NCBI RefSeq assembly: GCF_020215645.1
Contig: NZ_CP084058.1
Coordinates: 10,532,501 to 10,596,500, forward strand
DNA: 64,000 nt
Direction: 5' to 3'
From: Nonomuraea gerenzanensis
GTDB lineage: Bacteria > Actinomycetota > Actinomycetes > Streptosporangiales > Streptosporangiaceae
The stretch's first letter is position 1, and each line of letters begins with the position of its first letter. Both the position numbers and the translations under genes were made by a program. The notes below the pieces were generated by a model. It was not told the DNA's origin, searched no databases, and was given only the letters and a program-made list of their open reading frames with translations. This document shows positions 26,387 to 53,070 of this stretch, piece after piece.

Positions 26387-27358
26387 CTACCAGTCGCCGA
26401 CGAGCTCGCCGCCGTACCAGGTCTCGATCAGACGGCGGGCGATCGAGACGGGCGGCGGCAGGCGCAGCTCACCCGACTCCAGCGCCCGCGCCAGCTCCTC
26501 CCGCGAGAACCAGTGCGCCTCGGCGATCTCCTCGGCGTCGGGCGTCAGCGTGGTGGTCGTGGCCTCGGCGAAGAAGCCCAGCATGAGACTGCGCGGGAAC
26601 GGCCACGGCTGGCTGCCCAGGTAACGCGGATTGTGGACGGCGACGCCGACCTCCTCGGCCACCTCGCGCACGACGGCCGCCTCCAGCGACTCCCCCGGCT
26701 CCACGAACCCGGCCAGGATCGACAGCCGCCCCTCCGGCCACTGCGGGCCGCGGGCCAGCAGGCAGCGGTCGGCCTCGTCGCGGACCAGCATGATCACTGC
26801 GGGGTCGACGCGCGGGAAGTGCTGGCTGGAGTCCTTCGGGCAGACCCGGATGTGCCCGCCGGCCTGCACCACCGTGTGCGCGCCGCACCGCGGGCAGAAC
26901 TCGTGCGTGGCGTGCCAGGCCTCCAGCGCCACCGCGTAGACCAGCAGGCCCGCGTCACGGTCGCCGAGCAGGCCGCCGACCTGGCGCAGCCCCGCCGCCA
27001 CCGGCTCGCCCTCGGGCGCGTCGCGCAGGGACATGGGGATGGTGACGCGGCCGTTGACGTCGCCCTTGGGGATGCCGGGCAGCGCCGCGGCGACCGCGAA
27101 GTAGGCGACGCCGTCCTCCACGCCGAGCAGGTAGCGCTGGCCGGCGGGCGCGCCGTCGGGCGTGAACAGCACCGCGTGCACCTCGTCACCCACCCGGCGC
27201 ACCAGCGTGTGACCGTTGTCGATGACCAGCACCCTGGTCGCGGGATCCGCCCAGGCCCGCTCCAGCCACCGCTCGTCGGCGCGCAGGGCCGAGGAACGGT
27301 CGATGGTCCCCCGCGCAAGCAGTAGCGGGCCGATGAGTTGCTCTTGCGCGGTCTCCAC
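26387..27358 (-). CDS. nudC: NudC NAD(H) pyrophosphatase
   Basis: This 323-residue protein has an N-terminal NudC domain, a zinc ribbon (CPRC...VCPKD, where the fourth usual Cys is Asp) and a NUDIX box (GFVEPGESLEAAVVREVAEE). It also has the NudC signature SQPWPFPRSLM, which directs specificity to NADH or NAD-capped RNA. It starts at GTG. It is the last conserved backbone gene before the siderophore insertion and is divergent from that operon. Confidence 0.95.
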   Translation of the reverse strand: METAQEQLIGPLLLARGTIDRSSALRADERWLERAWADPATRVLVIDNGHTLVRRVGDEVHAVLFTPDGAPAGQRYLLGVEDGVAYFAVAAALPGIPKGDVNGRVTIPMSLRDAPEGEPVAAGLRQVGGLLGDRDAGLLVYAVALEAWHATHEFCPRCGAHTVVQAGGHIRVCPKDSSQHFPRVDPAVIMLVRDEADRCLLARGPQWPEGRLSILAGFVEPGESLEAAVVREVAEEVGVAVHNPRYLGSQPWPFPRSLMLGFFAEATTTTLTPDAEEIAEAHWFSREELARALESGELRLPPPVSIARRLIETWYGGELVGDW

Positions 27359-27466: not shown

Positions 27467-27485
27467 TTAGGTTAGCCTTACCTGA
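27467..27485 (+). promoter_or_regulatory. Iron box (IdeR/DmdR1-type operator)
   Basis: The 19-mer TTAGGTTAGCCTTACCTGA matches 16 of 19 positions of the actinobacterial iron-box consensus TTAGGTTAGGCTAACCTAA and keeps the palindromic half-sites. It lies 22 bases before the first siderophore gene. Binding of iron-loaded DtxR-family repressor is expected to shut the operon off in iron-replete cells. Confidence 0.9.
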
Positions 27486-27506
27486 TTCTTCGGGGGTGCC
27501 TTCGCG

Positions 27507-28646
27507 TTGCGGCTCTACCTGACCGCGCTCAAACCAACCGATTCCGTGACGGACGGCTTCCTGCCGGCGGCGCGGGCGCTCGGGTGCGAGGTGACGATCC
27601 TGACCGACCGGCCGGAGCGGCATCCGTCGGCGGTGTTGTGCGACGTACGGGACCCGCGCGCGTTGATCGACACCATCGAGCACCTCGGCAGGCCGGACGC
27701 GATCTTCTCCAACTCCGACCACCTTCAGACCGAGACGGCGCTGGCCGCGGCCTACTTCGGGCTGCCGGGCAAGGACTGGCGGGCGTGCGCGGCGGCCAAG
27801 AACAAGTTCCTGATGCGGCGCGGGCTCAAGGAGGCCGGGGTCGAGCAGGTCTTCTCCGTACGGCTCGGGCCGCTCGATCCGGTGCCCGCGCGGGTGCCGT
27901 ACCCCGTGGTGCTCAAGCCGCGCGAGGGGGTCGCCAGCGAGGACGTCATGCTGGTCGACGGCGACCTGGAACGTGCCGTGGCCGAGGTCAGGCGGCGGCG
28001 GCCTGGCGAGGCGCTGGTCGTGGAGGAGTACCTCGAAGGGCCGTTGCGGACGCTGGAGACGCTGGGGGACGCGGACGGGACGCGGGTGCTCGGCGGGTTC
28101 GAGACGACGCTGGGGGCGTTGCCGTACTTCGTCGAGGAGCGGCTCGACTGGGCGCCCGCCGACGACTCCCACGAGCATGTGCTGGCGGCGCTGCGGGCGC
28201 TCGGGGTGGGCTTCGGGGCGTGCCACACCGAGTACGTGGTCACCGCCGGCGGGCCGAGGATCGTGGAGGTCAACTACCGGGTGATCGGGGACCACTGCGA
28301 CTTCCTGCTGGGCGACCTGCTCGGGGTGCCGGTGTTCGAGTGGATCCTGGGGGTGCATCTCGGGGCGCGCGTGCCCGCGCCGCCGGAGACCTCCCGGTTC
28401 GGGACGGCGGTCAGCGTGGTCGCGGACCGGGCCGGGGTGATCAAGGACGCGCCGGGGCACGAGTCCGTGACCATCGGCGACGTGCGGCTGTGGCACCGGC
28501 CGCTGCGGGCCGTCGGCGAGGTCGTCACGCTGACCCGGACGAACCGTGACTATCTGGGCGTGATCAGGGCCGTGGGGCCCGGCAGGGAGCGGGTGGCCGC
28601 CGCCGTCGAGGAGTACCGGGTCGCGCGGCCGTGGGTGGTCGAATGA
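27507..28646 (+). CDS. PvsA-like ATP-grasp ligase of siderophore biosynthesis
   Basis: This 379-residue ATP-grasp protein has VVLKPREGVASEDVMLV (ATP-binding Lys), ALVVEEYLEGPLRTLE and a C-terminal metal site PRIVEVNYRVIGDHCDFL. The family joins a carboxylate to an amine through an acyl-phosphate. In vibrioferrin biosynthesis PvsA is an ATP-grasp enzyme encoded first in the operon, as here. The TTG start lies about nine bases after GGGGGTG. The gene lies directly behind the iron box and overlaps the next gene by ATGA. The substrate is inferred only from the operon pattern. Confidence 0.85.
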   Translation: MRLYLTALKPTDSVTDGFLPAARALGCEVTILTDRPERHPSAVLCDVRDPRALIDTIEHLGRPDAIFSNSDHLQTETALAAAYFGLPGKDWRACAAAKNKFLMRRGLKEAGVEQVFSVRLGPLDPVPARVPYPVVLKPREGVASEDVMLVDGDLERAVAEVRRRRPGEALVVEEYLEGPLRTLETLGDADGTRVLGGFETTLGALPYFVEERLDWAPADDSHEHVLAALRALGVGFGACHTEYVVTAGGPRIVEVNYRVIGDHCDFLLGDLLGVPVFEWILGVHLGARVPAPPETSRFGTAVSVVADRAGVIKDAPGHESVTIGDVRLWHRPLRAVGEVVTLTRTNRDYLGVIRAVGPGRERVAAAVEEYRVARPWVVE

Positions 28647-30157
28647 GCTCCAGGGAGGCCTACCTGGCCGCCCGGGTGCTGGACGCCCTGCTGCGCGAGG
28701 ACTACGGCGGCCTGGCCTCCCGCGTCACCCGCACCAAGGACGGGGTGGGGATGCTGCTCGCCGACGGGCGGTGGGTGCGGCTCTCACCCGGGGTGCTGTT
28801 CCAGGACTTCGTGGTGGCGGCCGACGAGCGGCTGGGGCTGGAGCAGGTGCTGGAGACGATCGTGGAGGTCGCGGCGCCCGAGGACGCCGAGGGGGTGGCG
28901 GCCTTCTTCGAGGAGTGCGTGGCGGCGCTCGCCGCGCTGGAGCTGCATGACGAGCGCGGGGGTGTCCCGCGGGCACCGTCGTACGAGACGCTGGCCGCGT
29001 CGGTGGACCATCCGGTCTATCCGACCTCGCGGGCCCGGGTGGGGCTGTCGGAGAGCGAGCTGCTGGCCTACGCGCCGGAGTTCGGGCCCTCGTTCGAGCT
29101 GCGGTGGGCCGTGGTCCCGCGCCGTGCGCTGGCGCCGGGCTCCGCCGCGCGCCTGCCCGCCGGCCTGGTGCCGGACTGGCCGGGCCACGCGGACGAAGCG
29201 CTCCTTTCCGCGCCGGACCATCCGGACGAGGTGCTCTTTCCCGTGCATCCGCTGACCGTGGACGAGGTGCGGAAGATCGACGGGGTGCGGGTGCTGGACG
29301 AGGCGGCCGTGACCGTGCGGCCCACGCTGTCCATGCGGACCGTCGAGGTCTTTCCGCGCCTGCATCTGAAGCTGCCGCTGCCGATCAGCACCCTGGGCGC
29401 CAGGAACCGGCGCTCGATCAAGGCCGGCACGCTGGCCGACGGCGCCAGGGCGGAGCTGCTGCTGCGGGAGCTGGCCGGCCCCGGCGTGGTGCTCGCCGAC
29501 GAGCAGACGTGGGCGCACGCCGGGCACGAGCACCTGGCCTGGATGGTACGGCGGCTGCCCGAAGGCGAGATCGTCCCCGTCGCCGCGCTGGGCGCCCCCG
29601 GCGTGCTCGAGGAGCTGGGCGACGTGCTGCCCGGCTACCTGCGGCTGCTGCTGCGGTGGAACGTGCGGCTCTTCGTCCGCTACGGCGTCGCGCTGGAGGC
29701 GCACCAGCAGAACCTGGCCCTGCTGTTCCGCGGCGACGGGCTCGAACTGCTGGTCAAGGACAACGACGGGCTGCTGGCCTCGCCGTCCAGGCTGCGGGCC
29801 GCCGGGGTGGCGGTGCCGGAGTTCGCCGACGAGCGCATGCTGAACGACGACCCGCACGCCCTGGCCGACGTCTTCGTGACCATCACGCTGCACCTGGCCT
29901 GCGCCGCCGTGGTGTTCGGCGCGCTGCCGCACGACCGGGCGGCGGCGCTGCTGCGCGACACGCTCGCCGAGGCACTGGACGAGTACGGCGACGACCCCAT
30001 GGCCAGGCTCCTGCGCGCCAGGACGCTCGACGCGGCCAGGCTGACCGGCAAGTCCATGATCACCGCCGGCACGCTCGTCTCGAAGCGACGTTCGGGGGCG
30101 CGCGACGTCAACAAGTTCTACGGCACCAGCGGGCCGAACTACCTGAGGAGAGCCTGA
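28643..30157 (+). CDS. IucA/IucC-type NIS siderophore synthetase (first)
   Basis: This 504-residue NRPS-independent siderophore synthetase has family motifs HPLTVDEVRKI, PTLSMRTVEV, LHLKLPLPIST, RNRRSIKAGTL, HEHLAWMVRRL and RYGVALEAHQQNLALLF, with a C-terminal FhuF-like region. Such enzymes adenylate citrate or a citryl intermediate and condense it with an amine or alcohol. It starts in an ATGA overlap with the ATP-grasp gene. By order it corresponds to PvsB. The acyl acceptor cannot be told from sequence. Confidence 0.9.
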   Translation: MSSREAYLAARVLDALLREDYGGLASRVTRTKDGVGMLLADGRWVRLSPGVLFQDFVVAADERLGLEQVLETIVEVAAPEDAEGVAAFFEECVAALAALELHDERGGVPRAPSYETLAASVDHPVYPTSRARVGLSESELLAYAPEFGPSFELRWAVVPRRALAPGSAARLPAGLVPDWPGHADEALLSAPDHPDEVLFPVHPLTVDEVRKIDGVRVLDEAAVTVRPTLSMRTVEVFPRLHLKLPLPISTLGARNRRSIKAGTLADGARAELLLRELAGPGVVLADEQTWAHAGHEHLAWMVRRLPEGEIVPVAALGAPGVLEELGDVLPGYLRLLLRWNVRLFVRYGVALEAHQQNLALLFRGDGLELLVKDNDGLLASPSRLRAAGVAVPEFADERMLNDDPHALADVFVTITLHLACAAVVFGALPHDRAAALLRDTLAEALDEYGDDPMARLLRARTLDAARLTGKSMITAGTLVSKRRSGARDVNKFYGTSGPNYLRRA

Positions 30158-30159
30158 AC

Positions 30160-31710
30160 ATGCACGGACTGGCCATCGACGCGTCTGCCGGCTCTGCCGA
30201 GCGGGCGACGCTGGCGGCCCTGCTGCGCTGCTGCGTGCGGGAGGTGGCCGGGCCGCGCGGGCTGGTGTGGCCGGCGCCGCCGTACGTGCTGCTGCGGGTG
30301 GCGGGCACGCTGCTGCGGGCCCGCACCCACGGCGGGGCGGCGCTGCGCTTCGAGGGCCCGCCCGAGCGGCTGGAGTCGGGCGCCTGGCGGCCGCTGGCGA
30401 GCGACGAGCTGGTCCGGTTGGTGGAGACCGAGCTGCAGGGACGGGGCGGGGTGCGGGGGCGCAACGGGGAGTTCGGCGAGCAGGTGGCGGCCAGCAGGGA
30501 CGCGGTGGCGGCCATCCTGCGGGCCAGGGCCTCGGCCGTGCCGCCCGCCGATCCTTGGCTCGCCTCGGAGCAGGCGCTGGTGTACGGGCATCCGTTCCAC
30601 CCCAGCCCCAAGGCGCGGGGCGGCGCGGGCTGGCTGGCGTACGCGCCCGAGGCGCACGCCCGCTTCCCCGTCAGGCTGCTCGGCGTGCGCGAGGACGCGC
30701 TGGCGCAGGGCGGCGACGCCTCGGTGCTGGACACGATGGGGCGCGCGCCGGACGGCTACCGGGTGCTGCCCGCGCATCCGTGGCAGCTCGACCTGCTCGG
30801 GCCGGTGCTCGGCCGCGAGCTGATCGACCTGGGGCCCGGGCCGGTCGTGGTGCCGACCTCGTCCGTGCGGACGGTGTACGTGCCGGAGGCGGAGGTCTGC
30901 CTGAAGTTCTCCCTGGACGTGCGGATCACCAACTGCGTACGCAGGCACGCCTGGTACGAGCTGGCCGGAGCCGTGGAGCTGACCGAGCGGCTCACCCCGG
31001 TCTTCGACGAGCTGTCGGCTAGGCACCCCGCGACCCGCTGGCTGCCCGAGCCGGGATACCGCTCGGTCTCCCTGGGCAGCGGGCTGCACGAGGGCCTCGG
31101 CGTGATCGTCAGGCGCAGCCCCTGGGCCGCCTGCTCCCCCGGCGTCACCCCGATCCTGGCCGGCGCGCTGGCCCAGGAGACGAAGGCGCACGACCCGGTC
31201 GCGTGGTGGCGCTCGTACGTGACGGTGGTCGCGCTGCCGGTCCTGGACCTGTACTTCACGCACGGCGTGGTGCTGGAGCCCCACCTGCAGAACGTGCTGG
31301 CGGGGCTGGACGGCGACGGCCTGCCCGTCGAGGCCGTCTTCCGCGACCTGGAGGGCACCAAGCTCGTCGCGGGCCGCCACGACCTCGGCGGGCTGCACCC
31401 CGAGGTGGCCCGCGCCCTCACCTACGACGCCGAACGCGGCTGGGCCCGCGTGGTCTACTGCCTGCTCGTCAACCACCTCACCGAGATCGCCGCGACGCTC
31501 GCGGGCACGGACGACGACCTGCTGCGCGAGCTGTGGCGGACGGCCAGGGACCTGTTCGACCGGCAGTCGGCGCGCCTGGGCCGGCCGCTGCCGCTGCAGG
31601 ACCTGCTGGCCGGCGCGCCGCTGCCCGCGAAGGCGAACCTGGGCGTGCGCTGGGCCAGGGCGGCCGACCGGGCCGCCGGTTACGTGCCGATCGCGAACCC
31701 GCTCGCATGA
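30160..31710 (+). CDS. IucA/IucC-type NIS siderophore synthetase (second)
   Basis: This 516-residue second NIS synthetase has the clear ATP/substrate signature GHPFHPSPKARGG, AHPWQLDLLGP, SSVRTVYVPE, LKFSLDVRITNCVR and HGVVLEPHLQNVLAGL. GAGGAG stands nine bases before ATG 30160. It begins two bases after the previous stop and overlaps the decarboxylase by ATGA, so all four genes form one tight unit. By position it corresponds to PvsD. Two non-identical NIS enzymes imply two condensation steps on citrate or another polycarboxylate. Confidence 0.93.
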   Translation: MHGLAIDASAGSAERATLAALLRCCVREVAGPRGLVWPAPPYVLLRVAGTLLRARTHGGAALRFEGPPERLESGAWRPLASDELVRLVETELQGRGGVRGRNGEFGEQVAASRDAVAAILRARASAVPPADPWLASEQALVYGHPFHPSPKARGGAGWLAYAPEAHARFPVRLLGVREDALAQGGDASVLDTMGRAPDGYRVLPAHPWQLDLLGPVLGRELIDLGPGPVVVPTSSVRTVYVPEAEVCLKFSLDVRITNCVRRHAWYELAGAVELTERLTPVFDELSARHPATRWLPEPGYRSVSLGSGLHEGLGVIVRRSPWAACSPGVTPILAGALAQETKAHDPVAWWRSYVTVVALPVLDLYFTHGVVLEPHLQNVLAGLDGDGLPVEAVFRDLEGTKLVAGRHDLGGLHPEVARALTYDAERGWARVVYCLLVNHLTEIAATLAGTDDDLLRELWRTARDLFDRQSARLGRPLPLQDLLAGAPLPAKANLGVRWARAADRAAGYVPIANPLA

Positions 31711-32774
31711 TCGGCTCCCGCGTCCTGGCCGCCGCCGAGGCCCTTCCCCAGGTCCCGGCCTACCTCTACGACCTGCCCGCCCTGGACGAGCACGTCGCGT
31801 CCGTACGGCGCGCGCTGGGCCCCGTCGAGCTGTACTACGCGGTCAAGGCCAACCCCGACGCCGAGCTGCTGCGGGTGCTGGCCGGGCACGTGGACGGGTT
31901 CGAGGTGTCGTCGGCGGGCGAGCACGCGCACGTCACGAGCCTGTTCCCGGGCGCGCGGGTGGCGCTGGGCGGGCCCGGCAAGACCGACGCCGAGCTGCGG
32001 CTGCCGCACCACCGCCTGCACGTCGAGTCGCCGAACGAGCTGCGCCGCCTGCTCGGCACGGGCCTGGAGGCGGACGTGCTGCTCAGGCTCAACCCCGATC
32101 TGCCGGTGGAGGGCGCGGCGCTGACGATGAGCGGGCCGTTCGGGATGGACGAGGACGGGATCGCGCGGTGCCTGCCGCTGTTCGGCGACCGGGTACGGCT
32201 GCGCGGCCTGCACGCCCACCTGGCCAGCGGGCTCGACGCCGGGCAGTTGCTGGGGCTGGCGCGGCGGCTGCTGGACGGCGACTGGGAGGAGGTCAACCTC
32301 GGTGGCGGGATGGCGGTGTCGTACGCGTCGCCGGAGTCGCGCTTCGACTGGGCCGCGTACGGGCAGGGGCTGGCCGGCCTGGCCCGGGGCAGGCGGCTGC
32401 GGATCGAGCCCGGCCGGGCGCTGACCGTCTACTGCGGCTACTACGTGACCAGGGTGGTGGACGTGAAGCGGGTGCGCGGCCAGGCGTACGCGATCCTGCT
32501 GGGCGGCACCCACCACCTGCGTACGCCGGCGACCAAGGGGCACGACCAGCCGTTCACCGTCCTGCCGGCCGGCAAGCCGGACGTGGCCGACGAACCGGTC
32601 ACGCTCGTCGGTCAGCTATGCACCCCGAAAGACGTTTTCGCCCGAAATATCGTTACTTCGGTGGGGGTGGGAGACACGGTGGTGTTCGAGCTGGCCGGAG
32701 CCTACGCCTGGAACATCTCCCACCACGACTTCCTCATGCACCCGAAGCCGGCTTTCCACCATCTACGAGCCTGA
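31707..32774 (+). CDS. PLP-dependent decarboxylase (PvsE/SbnH/LysA-like) of siderophore operon
   Basis: This 355-residue fold-type III PLP decarboxylase has the PLP Lys in YYAVKANP (Lys47), EVSSAGEHAHV, HAHLASGLD, the phosphate-binding NLGGGMAV and the substrate-Cys region LCTPKDVF. Relatives in vibrioferrin (PvsE) and staphyloferrin B (SbnH) operons decarboxylate a citryl-amino-acid intermediate. ATG 31707 overlaps the previous stop. The gene's last 41 bases overlap the convergent adnB end, which marks the edge of the inserted operon. Confidence 0.9.
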   Translation: MIGSRVLAAAEALPQVPAYLYDLPALDEHVASVRRALGPVELYYAVKANPDAELLRVLAGHVDGFEVSSAGEHAHVTSLFPGARVALGGPGKTDAELRLPHHRLHVESPNELRRLLGTGLEADVLLRLNPDLPVEGAALTMSGPFGMDEDGIARCLPLFGDRVRLRGLHAHLASGLDAGQLLGLARRLLDGDWEEVNLGGGMAVSYASPESRFDWAAYGQGLAGLARGRRLRIEPGRALTVYCGYYVTRVVDVKRVRGQAYAILLGGTHHLRTPATKGHDQPFTVLPAGKPDVADEPVTLVGQLCTPKDVFARNIVTSVGVGDTVVFELAGAYAWNISHHDFLMHPKPAFHHLRA

Positions 32775-35700
32775 CGCTCTCGATCAGCGCCACCAGGCCG
32801 TCGGCGTCGAGCAGGTCCACCGGGCGCACGGTGCGGTTGGCGCGGACGTAGTGGAAGGCCGCCCCGACCTCCTCCAGCGGCACCTGCGCCAGGTGCGACC
32901 AGGCCAGCCGGTACGCGGCGAGCTGCACGGAGGCGGCCCTGGCTGCCTTCTTGCCCCGCGGCGGCTGCCCGGTCTTCCAGTCGACGACCTCGTAGCCGCC
33001 GCCGTCCCGCTCGAAGACGGCGTCCATCCGCCCACGCACCAGCCGGTCGGCGATCATGGTCTCGAACGGGACCTCCAGGTCGACCGGCCGCCGGTCGGCC
33101 CACTCGCTCTGCTCGAACCGCTCCTGCAGCTCCGCCAGCCGCACGTCGGCCTCTTCCAGCTCCTCGTCGTACAGCTCCAGGTCGTCGATCAGCCGCTGCT
33201 GGTCCCAGCGGGTCTCCAGCCACTTGTGGAAGGAGGTGCCCCGGCGGGCCAGCGGCGCGGGCTTCTTCGGCACGGGGCGGCGGATCCTGCGGGCCAGCTC
33301 GCGCGGGTCGGCGGCCAGCGTGACCAGCGCGGACACGGTCAGCTTGGCCGGCAGCTCGACCGTGGTGGCGGGCTTGCGCCGGTGCAGCTCCCGCTCGCGC
33401 AGCAGCAGGTCGGTGTCGCGCTGCCAGGCCCGCAGGCGCTCCTCCTCGAACGCCTTGATCGGCTCGTCCTCGTACGGGCCCAGCGTGCCCGCCAGCGCGT
33501 CCTCGACCAGGCGGGCGCCGTCGAGCACGGACTCGTAGCGCAGCCCCTCGGGCTCGACCGGCCAGGTGGCCTCGGCCGGCTCGGCCAGCAGCGGGTTCGT
33601 GGCGCCCTCCGCGAGGTCGTCGGCCCAGAACGAGATCCGGTCGGCGGTGTCGCGGATCTCCAGCAGGAAGTCGGACGGCTCCAGCGGCTTGGTGGCGCTG
33701 CCCCAGCGGTAGCCGGAGGCGATCAGGTGGTAGTGGGCCCGGGTCACGGCCACGTACGCGAGCCTGCGCTCCTCCATCAGGTCCCGCTCGCGGCAGTGCT
33801 CGTCGAAGGCCGCCAGCTCCTCCTTGCTCAGCCCGCCCAGCCGGGGCAGGTCGGCGGCGTCGCCACGCAGCGCGTACGGGAGCTTGCGCGGGTTCTCCGT
33901 CCACCGGCTGTTCATCACCGGCGTGGCGGGGAAGATGCTGCCCGTCGCGATCGTCCCCTTCGTGCTCACGAGCTGCGACAGGCCGGGCACCACGACGACC
34001 GGCCACTCCAGGCCCTTCGAGGCGTGCACGGTCATCAGCTTGACGCTGTTGCTCTCGCCGACCCGGCCCGCCTCCAGGCCGAACTCCTCGCTCTCCGCCG
34101 CCTGAAGGTAGGCCAGGAACGCGCCCAGCGTCGGGTCCTCCGCGTCGCCCGCGAACCTGGACGCAGCGTCGAGGAACGCGTCGAGGTCGGCCCGCGCCGC
34201 GAACGCCCCCACCGTGCCGCTGCGCGCCGCCACCTCGATGTCCAGGCCGAGCCTGCGCTCCACCTCGCTGATCAGGTCGGGCAGCGGCTGCGCGGTGTGC
34301 GCGCGCAGGTGGCGCAGCTCCTGGGCGAGCGCCACCAGCCTGGTGCGGGCCAGCGGCGAGTACGGCTCCAGCCACTCCTCCCGGTCGGGCAGCTCGTCCA
34401 GGGCGTCCACCAGGCTGCCGCGCTCCTCGGCCAGGTCGGCCACCACCTGGTCGAGCGGGTCGTCCTCGCGGTGGCTCTCGCTCAGCTCGCGGGCCAGCGT
34501 GCGGGCCTGCTCGCCGAGCACCCGCAGGTCAGCGGGGCCGATCCGCCAGCGGGGGCCCGCCAGCAGCCTGGCCAGCGCGTCGCCCGCCGTGGGGTCGTAC
34601 AGCACGCGCAGAGTGGCCACGATGTCGCTCACCTCGGGCACGGTCAGCAGGCCGCCCAGGCCCACCACCTCGACCGGGATGTCACGCTCCTCCAGCGCCC
34701 TGCGCAGCGCGGGGAACTGCGAGCGCTTACGGGCCAGGATGGCGACGTCCTGGGGCTGCAGGGCGAGCGTCTTCTTGCGCTCCTTCTCGCCCCAGGGCAG
34801 GCCGTCGGGGGCCGTCTCCTGGCCGAGGAGCCTGGCGACGCCGTCGGCGATCCACTTGGCCTCGTCCTCGGCGGTCTCGTGGAAGGCGCAGGTGACGCGG
34901 CCGCGCTCGATCCGGTTCGGGCCGGGGACCAGCACGGGCACCTCGCGGGCCTCCATGCGCAGCGGGAGCTGGACGCGGGCGGCCACGTCGAGCACGCGGT
35001 CGCCGTTGCGGAAGCTGACGCTGAGCTGGCGCACCGGGGCCTGGTCGCCGGTGGCCGTGCGGAAGTCCTTGGGGAAGCGGCGCAGGTTGCCCGCCGAGGC
35101 GCCGCGCCAGCCGTAGATGGACTGGCACGGGTCGCCCACGGCGGTGACCGGATGGCCGCCGCCGTAGAGCGAGCGCAGCAGGACGAGCTGGGCGTGGCTG
35201 GTGTCCTGGTACTCGTCGAGCAGGACCACCGAGTAGCGGCCCCGCTCGATCTCGCCGACCTCCTTGTGGTTGGCGGCGATCCTGGCGGCCAGCGACATCT
35301 GGTCGCCGTAGTCGATGACCTCGCGGGCGCGCTTGAGCCGCTCGTACCGCTCCACCAGGGGCAGGAGCTGCTCCCTGGCCGCGTGCACGCTCAGCGGCTT
35401 GCGCTGGGCCAGTGTCGTGCGGCCCGGCAGGACGGCGTGCCTGGCCGCCAGCCACTCCCCCACGCCCCGCACGTCGGCGGGCGAGCGCAGGTGCTCCGAG
35501 AGCTCGCCTGCCAGCTCCAGCAGGGCGGCCGTGACCGAGGGCGGGCCCAGCTCGATCCTGTCCATCGGCCCGTCGTACATCGCCACCACCCGCGAGGCGA
35601 GCTGCCACGACACGGCGGGCCTGACCAGGCGCATGGTCGGCTCCAGCCCCTCGCGCAGCGCGTGGTCGGTGACCAGGCGGGCGGCGTAGGCGTGGTAGGT

Positions 35701-36015
35701 GGACACGGTGGGCTCGTTGTCGAGCGCGCCCGGCTCGACCAGCCCGGCCTCCGCCAGGCCGTTGAGCCGCTCCCTGACCCGGGTGGCCAGCTCGGCGGCG
35801 GCCTTGCGGGTGAACGTCAGGCCCAGCACGTTCTCCGGCTTGACCAGGCCGTTGGCGACCAGCCAGACCACGCGGCCGGCCATGGTCTCGCTCTTGCCGG
35901 AGCCGGCGCCCGCCATGACGACCATCGGCTCCAGCGGGGCCTCGATGACCGTCGCCTGCTCGGGGGTGGGCGGGAGGATGCCGAGCTTGCCGGCGAGTTC
36001 GGCGGGGGTCAGCAC
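32734..36015 (-). CDS. adnB: AdnB helicase-nuclease subunit
   Basis: This 1093-residue UvrD-like motor has Walker A (AGAGSGKSETM, about 35-45), LLDEYQDTSHAQ, GDPCQSIYGWRGA, MTVHASKGLEW and RLAYVAVTRAHYHL. A C-terminal RecB-type PD-(D/E)xK nuclease follows, with Asp and Lys in EVVDWKTG (about 1010). With AdnA it makes the mycobacterial-type end-resection machine that processes double-strand breaks. The GTG start overlaps the adnA stop in GTGTGCTGA, so the subunits are translationally coupled. Length and order match M. tuberculosis AdnB. Confidence 0.94.
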   Translation of the reverse strand: MLTPAELAGKLGILPPTPEQATVIEAPLEPMVVMAGAGSGKSETMAGRVVWLVANGLVKPENVLGLTFTRKAAAELATRVRERLNGLAEAGLVEPGALDNEPTVSTYHAYAARLVTDHALREGLEPTMRLVRPAVSWQLASRVVAMYDGPMDRIELGPPSVTAALLELAGELSEHLRSPADVRGVGEWLAARHAVLPGRTTLAQRKPLSVHAAREQLLPLVERYERLKRAREVIDYGDQMSLAARIAANHKEVGEIERGRYSVVLLDEYQDTSHAQLVLLRSLYGGGHPVTAVGDPCQSIYGWRGASAGNLRRFPKDFRTATGDQAPVRQLSVSFRNGDRVLDVAARVQLPLRMEAREVPVLVPGPNRIERGRVTCAFHETAEDEAKWIADGVARLLGQETAPDGLPWGEKERKKTLALQPQDVAILARKRSQFPALRRALEERDIPVEVVGLGGLLTVPEVSDIVATLRVLYDPTAGDALARLLAGPRWRIGPADLRVLGEQARTLARELSESHREDDPLDQVVADLAEERGSLVDALDELPDREEWLEPYSPLARTRLVALAQELRHLRAHTAQPLPDLISEVERRLGLDIEVAARSGTVGAFAARADLDAFLDAASRFAGDAEDPTLGAFLAYLQAAESEEFGLEAGRVGESNSVKLMTVHASKGLEWPVVVVPGLSQLVSTKGTIATGSIFPATPVMNSRWTENPRKLPYALRGDAADLPRLGGLSKEELAAFDEHCRERDLMEERRLAYVAVTRAHYHLIASGYRWGSATKPLEPSDFLLEIRDTADRISFWADDLAEGATNPLLAEPAEATWPVEPEGLRYESVLDGARLVEDALAGTLGPYEDEPIKAFEEERLRAWQRDTDLLLRERELHRRKPATTVELPAKLTVSALVTLAADPRELARRIRRPVPKKPAPLARRGTSFHKWLETRWDQQRLIDDLELYDEELEEADVRLAELQERFEQSEWADRRPVDLEVPFETMIADRLVRGRMDAVFERDGGGYEVVDWKTGQPPRGKKAARAASVQLAAYRLAWSHLAQVPLEEVGAAFHYVRANRTVRPVDLLDADGLVALIESVRLVDGGKPASGA

Positions 36016-52068: not shown

Positions 52069-52407
52069 ATGCCCAAGCTCAAGAGTGTTATCGCAGGCCT
52101 CGCCATCAGCACGGCGCTGACCGGCGGCATGGTGGGCGCGGGCGCGGCGACGACCGCGGCCAGCGCGACCACCCAGTTCAGCACCGGCACGTCCCTTCGC
52201 ACGGACGACGGCTGGGGCTGGGGCCGTCGTCATCACCACCACCACCGTCACCACAACCACCGCTGCGGCCGGGGTCACCACCACGGCGGCGGCTGGGGCT
52301 GGGGCTGGGGCGGCCGGCGTCACCACCGCGGCCACGTCTGCATCGTCATCCGCAACGACAACCACAACGACAACGGCCCTCGGCACCACGAGGACCGGCG
52401 CTGGTAA
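52069..52407 (+). CDS. Secreted Gly/Trp/His-rich small protein, paralogue 1
   Basis: This 112-residue protein begins MPKLKSVIAGLAISTALTGG, a Sec signal peptide cleaved near ASA (about 33). The mature part is made of (GW)n/His runs (GWGWGRRHHHHHRHHNHRC, GWGWGWGGRRHH) and ends with a β-like HVCIVIRNDN segment. About 20 His residues could bind metals such as zinc, nickel or copper. Two Cys are present. It shares its signal peptide almost exactly with two further genes. No family is recognised, and metal or surface binding is inferred from composition. Confidence 0.82.
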   Translation: MPKLKSVIAGLAISTALTGGMVGAGAATTAASATTQFSTGTSLRTDDGWGWGRRHHHHHRHHNHRCGRGHHHGGGWGWGWGGRRHHRGHVCIVIRNDNHNDNGPRHHEDRRW

Positions 52408-52678: not shown

Positions 52679-52801
52679 ATGCACTGTGCGGATGACTTGC
52701 TACTCGTTATCCGTAACGGGGCAATCGAATCCTTTAGGGGGAAAACGCAATGCCCAAGCTCAAAAGTGTCATCGCAGGCCTCGCCATCAGCACCGCGCTG
52801 A
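52679..52801 (+). CDS. Possible small upstream ORF overlapping paralogue 2
   Basis: A 40-codon frame from ATG 52679 follows a strong AGGGAGGAAAT ribosome site and begins MHCADDLLLVIRNG. It runs out of frame into the start of the next gene and stops 50 bases inside it. That layout could couple or restrict translation of the secreted protein. Its C-terminal half simply mirrors the alternative frame of the signal peptide, so it may be an accidental reading frame. Confidence 0.25.
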   Translation: MHCADDLLLVIRNGAIESFRGKTQCPSSKVSSQASPSAPR

Positions 52802-53070
52802 CCGGCGGCGTGGTGAGCGCGGGAGCGGCCACCACCGCTGCCAGCGCAGACGCCGCCACACAGGTCAGCACCGGCACATCCACCCTGACCGGGAACCACT
52901 GCGGTTGGGGCTGGCGTCGCAGCCGCTGCGGCGGAGGCTGGGGATGGGGCTGGAACCGCGGTAAGCGGTGGGGCCACCGCCACCACGGCCACGGCCGCAT
53001 CAGGATCGTCATCGTCAACAGGAACTACAACAACAACGGTCACCATCACCGTGATCGCGATCGGTGGTAG
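52750..53070 (+). CDS. Secreted Gly/Trp/His-rich small protein, paralogue 2
   Basis: This 106-residue protein has the same signal peptide (MPKLKSVIAGLAISTALTGG) as paralogues 1 and 3. The mature part has NHCGWGWRRSRCGGGWGWGW, then HRHHGHG and a terminal strand RIRIVIVNRNYNNN, ending in a His/Asp/Arg tail. Two Cys and about 10 His are present. CCTTTAGGGGG precedes the ATG. Only the last 30 or so leader bases match the other copies, so it is probably controlled differently. Confidence 0.82.
   Translation: MPKLKSVIAGLAISTALTGGVVSAGAATTAASADAATQVSTGTSTLTGNHCGWGWRRSRCGGGWGWGWNRGKRWGHRHHGHGRIRIVIVNRNYNNNGHHHRDRDRW

What the first reader, a model, noticed from the sequence alone, without database searches (positions are those of the whole stretch)
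27467..32774. Iron-box-controlled, vibrioferrin-like (Pvs-order) siderophore operon in an actinomycete
Seen: four tightly coupled genes behind an iron box matching 16 of 19 consensus bases. The order is ATP-grasp, IucA/IucC-type, IucA/IucC-type, PLP decarboxylase. Known: Vibrio pvsA-B-C-D-E has exactly this order of classes, with pvsC an exporter. Inferred: this is a pvsABDE-like set that lost or never had the exporter, making a citrate-type carboxylate siderophore not obviously among the known actinobacterial ones. An ATP-grasp enzyme is unusual beside NIS synthetases in this phylum.
Basis: partly seen in the sequence, partly recalled or inferred. Interest (0 to 1): 0.82.

Follow-up and report, generated by a model that had tools for sequence, protein, structure and literature searches.

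The report
Exporter-less vibrioferrin-type siderophore operon, Nonomuraea
Four probably iron-controlled genes in a soil actinomycete are counterparts of the enzymes with which marine vibrios make the iron scavenger vibrioferrin; the set is common among its relatives but lacks the usual export pump, so how the product leaves the cell is open.

Summary
Four genes (27507-32774) follow an iron box (27467-27485), one of the best matches in the 12 Mb genome (Nonomuraea, near-identical to N. gerenzanensis). By pairwise comparison and trees they are PvsA (ATP-grasp), PvsB and PvsD (NIS synthetases) and PvsE (decarboxylase) of vibrioferrin-type clusters. PvsA and PvsB are the specific markers; PvsD and PvsE also resemble achromobactin enzymes. 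Best reading: vibrioferrin or a close analogue, made under iron shortage. No product was tested.

The set is not unusual in the phylum: PvsA occurs in 60 of 121 genomes sampled from the order and 46 of 199 from a genus taken to be Streptomyces. A four-gene S. avermitilis cluster, avs, is already called 'vibrioferrin-like'.

Seen here: the exporter PvsC is absent from 40 of 40 relatives' loci and was not found in 41 of 41 genomes. Operons with and without it intermingle in the Streptomyces-type tree, suggesting repeated loss. The box is kept in 80 of 80 named relatives. In 13 of 40 relatives PvsE lies elsewhere, unboxed. A distant, iron-boxed binding lipoprotein is the probable receptor.

The parts
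27467..27485 (+). Iron box (DtxR/IdeR-type operator; the type is recalled), 21 bp before the start codon of gene A
   Evidence: at this place with at most 2 mismatches in 38 of 40 and 80 of 80 related loci
27507..28646 (+). PvsA-type ATP-grasp ligase (379 aa, TTG start)
28643..30157 (+). PvsB-type NIS synthetase (504 aa), nearest other group SbnC/AcsA-type
30160..31710 (+). PvsD-type NIS synthetase (516 aa), same group as AcsD
31707..32774 (+). PvsE-type PLP-dependent decarboxylase (355 aa)

Best explanation
This is a vibrioferrin-type biosynthetic operon (pvsABDE) shared by many Streptosporangiaceae. When iron is scarce an iron-dependent repressor should leave the box, and all four enzymes should be made from one mRNA (inferred). 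Proposed chemistry (inferred from family membership, no step shown here): C (PvsD, like AcsD) adenylates citrate and esterifies it with L-serine; D (PvsE, like AcsE/SbnH) decarboxylates the adduct to O-citryl-ethanolamine; A (PvsA, an L-amino-acid-ligase type ATP-grasp enzyme) adds L-alanine to the free amine; B (PvsB, like SbnC) adds 2-oxoglutarate, which closes to the hydroxy-pyrrolidone. The product is vibrioferrin or a close alpha-hydroxycarboxylate analogue. It leaves by an exporter unrelated to PvsC, and the ferric complex is probably caught by an unlinked iron-boxed binding lipoprotein (G000:C1:1955920-1956846) and carried in by a FecCD-type ABC transporter.
Against: No product was measured, and none of the four reference operons is, to my knowledge, itself tested; only the Pantoea record names a gene PvsA, the other Pvs labels are mine by class and order. 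PvsD and PvsE do not separate vibrioferrin from achromobactin: AcsD- and AcsE-type rows of Sodalis fall among the proteobacterial PvsD and PvsE rows. Identity to the Vibrio proteins is only 30-41%, so amino-acid or keto-acid choice may have changed. The order of steps differs from two reviews (PMC5577590, PMC6836290, passages), where PvsE acts on serine and PvsA makes the ester. No PvsC is present. In 13 of 40 relatives PvsE is unlinked and unboxed, so it may have another role there. 44 of the 60 genomes with PvsA lack the close binding protein, and the three orthologues at about 61% identity have no box. Some boxes in the genome, two of them with 2 mismatches, lie beside genes with no clear iron role (CheB-like, pyruvate dehydrogenase).
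Confidence: 0.8

Rival explanations
1. The same enzyme classes make a different citrate siderophore, not of vibrioferrin type: another amino acid in place of alanine, or serine kept undecarboxylated where PvsE is not co-regulated.
For: 30-50% identity to the reference enzymes; PvsE unlinked and unboxed in 13 of 40 relatives; PvsD-type proteins also occur in other actinobacterial NIS loci without an adjacent ATP-grasp gene.
Against: PvsA and PvsB occur together in one conserved set and PvsB forms one clade with the proteobacterial proteins; in Nonomuraea the PvsE gene overlaps the PvsD gene.
Confidence: 0.25
2. A staphyloferrin B- or achromobactin-type pathway.
For: PvsB groups with SbnC/AcsA-type rows, PvsD with AcsD, and D resembles chain 6knh, whose identity as SbnH I recall.
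Against: The three such clusters read have three NIS genes each and, for staphyloferrin B, annotated sbnA and sbnB; here there are two NIS genes plus the ATP-grasp. B lies outside the SbnC/AcsA clade (100/100) and inside the PvsB clade.
Confidence: 0.03
3. A decaying operon without function, since its exporter and uptake genes are gone.
For: No PvsC found in the genome; B and C are shorter than the proteobacterial ones (504/516 against 570-621 aa).
Against: All four frames intact; order A-B-C and iron box kept in 80 of 80 named loci; the B model matches whole NIS structures.
Confidence: 0.03

Closest known systems
pvsABCDE, vibrioferrin operon of Vibrio (compared here through look-alike operons of V. 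fortis, Pantoea soli, Cupriavidus necator pHG1 and Rhodococcus WAY2)
   Same: The four enzymes, their order and close packing
   Different: No pvsC exporter between the B and D genes; no adjacent receptor or uptake genes; DtxR/IdeR-type box
S. avermitilis avs cluster (avsA-D), 'vibrioferrin-like polyhydroxycarboxylate siderophore'
   Same: Four consecutive genes, three synthetase components then a decarboxylase, no exporter in the list (PMC9394381, table passage)
   Different: Sequences not compared; whether avsA is the ATP-grasp protein is not stated in the passages I read
   Same: A, B, C, D orthologues (A 55%, B 46%, C 47%, D 56% to the best reference)
   Different: Has two permeases, an ATPase and a binding protein before A, PvsC between B and C, and no iron box within 300 bp of A
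Staphyloferrin B (sbn) and achromobactin-type (acs) clusters
   Same: PvsB relates to SbnC/AcsA, PvsD to AcsD, PvsE to SbnH/AcsE (labels in the clusters read are mine by gene order, except sbnA and sbnB)
   Different: Three NIS synthetases, no ATP-grasp enzyme

Membership tests
Vibrioferrin-type enzyme set (PvsA, PvsB, PvsD, PvsE) | ATP-grasp ligase orthologous to PvsA | tested here: met
   39-47% identity to four pvs-linked proteins; among the 30 rows listed of 242 plasmid records, those outside pvs-type loci are at 33% or less, and the pvs-linked Piscirickettsia protein is also at 33%
Vibrioferrin-type enzyme set (PvsA, PvsB, PvsD, PvsE) | NIS synthetase in the PvsB clade | tested here: met
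   clade of 16 rows, 100/99
Vibrioferrin-type enzyme set (PvsA, PvsB, PvsD, PvsE) | NIS synthetase in the PvsD clade | tested here: met
   99/98; the clade also holds AcsD, so it is not specific
Vibrioferrin-type enzyme set (PvsA, PvsB, PvsD, PvsE) | PvsE-type decarboxylase, linked | tested here: met
   an AcsE-type row is also among the relatives
Canonical pvsABCDE operon | MFS exporter PvsC in the operon | tested here: not met
   absent from the operon; best hit elsewhere in the genome E 4.3e-6 with the Rhodococcus PvsC; none at 1e-8 with the Streptomyces-type PvsC in 41 of 41 genomes of the own family, up to 44 candidates scored in each
Canonical pvsABCDE operon | Iron-repressed transcription | not testable with these tools
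   only the operator sequence was seen
Canonical pvsABCDE operon | Product is vibrioferrin | not testable with these tools
   needs culture and LC-MS
Staphyloferrin B / achromobactin-type cluster | Three NIS synthetases; no PvsA | tested here: not met
   two NIS genes plus ATP-grasp here; compared with L231, L232, L233

The most novel reading that the evidence does not exclude
Actinomycetes have repeatedly dropped PvsC and the linked uptake genes while keeping the enzymes under an iron box, so a second, unrelated export route for a vibrioferrin-type siderophore exists in Gram-positive bacteria, with receptor and (in some genera) decarboxylase genes dispersed around the chromosome; the product may be a new analogue.
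Probability: 0.35. Interest if true: 0.55.

Novelty: new member of a known kind. Interest (0 to 1): 0.36.

Why it matters
Vibrioferrin is known as a weak, light-sensitive siderophore of marine bacteria (PMC6836290, passage). Finding its enzyme set in 60 of 121 sampled genomes of an actinomycete order, under a conserved iron box and without its exporter, gives a defined product hypothesis for many uncharacterised NIS siderophore clusters and a clean genetic test of how the compound is exported and recovered without an outer membrane.

Tried and rejected
Exporter elsewhere under an iron box: none of the 20 box-side or nearby genes scanned by profile is an MFS pump; not every gene beside a box was scanned. 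An MsbA-like ABC exporter sits in the NRPS siderophore cluster (L095:7830-9605), but nothing ties it to this operon. One MFS-like gene next to a box (L099:4516-5685, by its translation only) ends at the box and starts over 1 kb away from it, so the box does not precede it.

Iron box before the unlinked PvsE genes: best of 14 has 7 mismatches, so the idea that they carry their own box was dropped.

Binding protein as a strict marker of the operon: all 16 genomes (own included) with a homologue of at least 60% identity have PvsA (60 PvsA-positive of 121; P 4e-6 if genomes were independent, which they are not), but 44 PvsA genomes lack it, and one fast tree does not resolve it cleanly from paralogues or from the Rhodococcus and Streptomyces-type cluster proteins. 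Hence 'probable' only.

Shortened synthetases as a sign of decay: rejected, see rivals.

FW0622 as the product family: 11 papers that name it were listed, none read, so nothing is claimed. Searches for print on this operon. 'Vibrioferrin' with 'Nonomuraea' gave 0 papers. The library lacks most subscription journals; the 2003 Vibrio pvs paper is not held. Passages only were read of PMC9394381, PMC11219617, PMC5577590, PMC6836290, PMC13036778, PMC12026967, PMC10920908, PMC4675942 and PMC4431377; apart from the first, third and fourth they added nothing on this operon.

Caveats on counts. The own family is f1 of the tool; the genera named I assign to Streptosporangiaceae largely by recall. The phylum sample scored 4 candidates per genome, the order sample up to 16, the genus sample 9; undercounts are possible. 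Loci were read for 40 of the 60 positives and for 22 of the 46 positives. One of the 55 NIS rows (PvsB_L084) is a mislabelled copy of PvsD_L084; it sits in the PvsD clade. AcsA_Sodalis and AcsE_Sodalis have long branches, their places are unsure, and trees are rooted at the midpoint for drawing. In one search, 2 of 40 loci had no box within 2 mismatches: L070 has 5, and L080 was called from a start far upstream. The 80 loci overlap in species with the 40; they are the 80 best kept of 552 relatives in a capped scan.
Full report
WHAT IS THERE. The window is G000:C1:10532501-10596500 of a 12.07 Mb genome. The operon proteins are 99.7-100% identical to those of Nonomuraea gerenzanensis record NZ_LT559118, an 11.85 Mb circular record filed in the plasmid collection. 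Four genes run A 27507-28646, B 28643-30157, C 30160-31710, D 31707-32774, all +, with 4-nt overlaps at A/B and C/D and a 2-nt gap at B/C. A codon-statistics caller trained partly on these genes gives the same four (so not independent). Read from their translations only, the neighbours are a NUDIX-type gene upstream (26387-27358, -) and a helicase-nuclease type gene downstream (32734-36015, -). No sigma-70-like promoter or terminator consensus was found.

IRON BOX. TTAGGTTAGCCTTACCTGA, 27467-27485, lies 21 bp before the TTG start. It is the only genome site without mismatch to one pattern, but that pattern was written after seeing the site; with the symmetric motif it ties with several sites at 1 mismatch. 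About 21 places reach 3 mismatches. Genes beside them include bacterioferritin, two siderophore-interacting proteins, FecCD permeases, Peripla_BP_2 binding proteins, a SufR-like regulator (below cut-off) and an NRPS cluster with an N-monooxygenase; EfeU lies 0.6 kb from one. Others lie beside genes without a clear iron role (pyruvate dehydrogenase, CheB-like), so not every such site is real.

DISTRIBUTION. PvsA at E 1e-40 or better: 60 of 121 genomes drawn from the order, 46 of 199 from a genus taken to be Streptomyces, 3 of 396 from the phylum including this one, with a shallow look. A scan of named genomes kept the 80 best loci (Nonomuraea, Streptosporangium, Planomonospora, Microbispora and the like). 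The order A-B-C is present in 80 of 80; D follows in 63, lies inverted beside in 3, and is not seen in 14, of which 2 run off the contig. PvsC is seen in none of the 80. The box has at most 2 mismatches in 80 of 80.

WHAT IS MISSING AND WHERE IT WENT. In 13 of 40 genome loci D is not adjacent. All 13 genomes have an orthologue elsewhere, in two separate groups of the tree, without an iron box. PvsC: not found at E 1e-8 in 41 of 41 genomes of the own family; of the two Streptomyces-type genomes in that call, G248 has it and G281 does not. Among 22 Streptomyces-type loci read, 12 have permeases, ATPase, binding protein, A, B, PvsC, C, D; 10 have only A, B, C, D. Within 300 bp before A, 8 of these 10 and 0 of the 12 have a box with at most 3 mismatches. 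The two kinds intermingle in a tree of joined A, B and C proteins (37 rows): L284, L281/L120, L267 and L005 without PvsC sit among full ones, with supports of 79-100. This suggests repeated loss; gain or exchange is not excluded. The binding protein of the full cluster has one outstanding homologue in this genome, a lone lipoprotein-like gene at C1:1955920-1956846 (46%, E 4.8e-66; next 1.2e-19), about 1.96 Mb against 10.56 Mb for the operon, with an iron box (3 mismatches) 11 bp before its ATG. The box is present (1-4 mismatches) in the 12 closest orthologues and absent in the next three.

MECHANISM. Shown by sequence: enzyme classes, co-orientation, operator-like site, conservation. Inferred: PvsD forms O-citryl-serine; PvsE decarboxylates it; PvsA adds alanine; PvsB adds 2-oxoglutarate; ring closure follows. 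The vibrioferrin components (ethanolamine, alanine, 2-oxoglutarate, citrate) are from PMC5577590 (passage), which says the specific enzyme functions remain untested and gives a different assignment (PvsA as ester-forming). My order rests on the relation of C to AcsD, B to SbnC, D to the decarboxylases of those pathways and A to amino-acid ligases; the reactions of AcsD, AcsE, SbnC and SbnH and the ring closure are recalled.

RELATION TO WHAT IS KNOWN. Its enzymes belong to the vibrioferrin-type set; it is not a canonical pvsABCDE operon because PvsC was looked for and not found. A four-gene avs cluster of S. avermitilis is called vibrioferrin-like (PMC9394381, passages), so vibrioferrin-like clusters in actinomycetes are not a new idea. 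I saw no paper linking such an operon to a measured product in this phylum, within the ten searches named under Tried and rejected.

VERDICT.

Noticed in passing
L044:9340-12632 (G000:C1 about 11690339-11693631): A second NIS locus in the same genome: two divergent NIS genes with no ATP-grasp or decarboxylase among the ten ORFs scanned there and no iron box. One (L044:9340-11001, -) nests inside the actinobacterial PvsD group (nearest fork 91/86) beside a Streptomyces protein (L013), so a PvsD copy seems to have been recruited to another pathway.
   Followed up: partly
L012:8439-12948: Streptomyces sp. BHT-5-2 plasmid locus with PvsD- and PvsE-like genes and a different first NIS gene, but no PvsA nearby: another use of the PvsD/PvsE pair.
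   Followed up: partly
L101:3645-7662: PALP-family gene followed, after an iron-box-like site (3 mismatches), by a FecCD permease and two genes that look like a permease and an ATPase by translation; a possible iron-uptake operon with an odd companion.
   Followed up: no
L072, L073, L074, L083, L084: PvsA is called longer in these loci (422-470 aa against 379), an insertion that was not examined.
   Followed up: no
window 32734-32774: The 3' ends of the decarboxylase gene (+) and the downstream helicase-nuclease type ORF (-) overlap by 41 bp, convergent.
   Followed up: no
window 52069-52407 and 52750-53070: Two small ORFs with nearly identical N-termini (MPKLKSVIAGLAISTALTGG), apparently a tandem pair of small secreted proteins.
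   Followed up: no
L005, L006, L007, L008: pvs-type operons lie on large linear plasmids in Streptomyces chartreusis, Embleya and Rhodococcus and on the conjugative megaplasmid pHG1 of C. necator, a possible route of spread between phyla.
   Followed up: no
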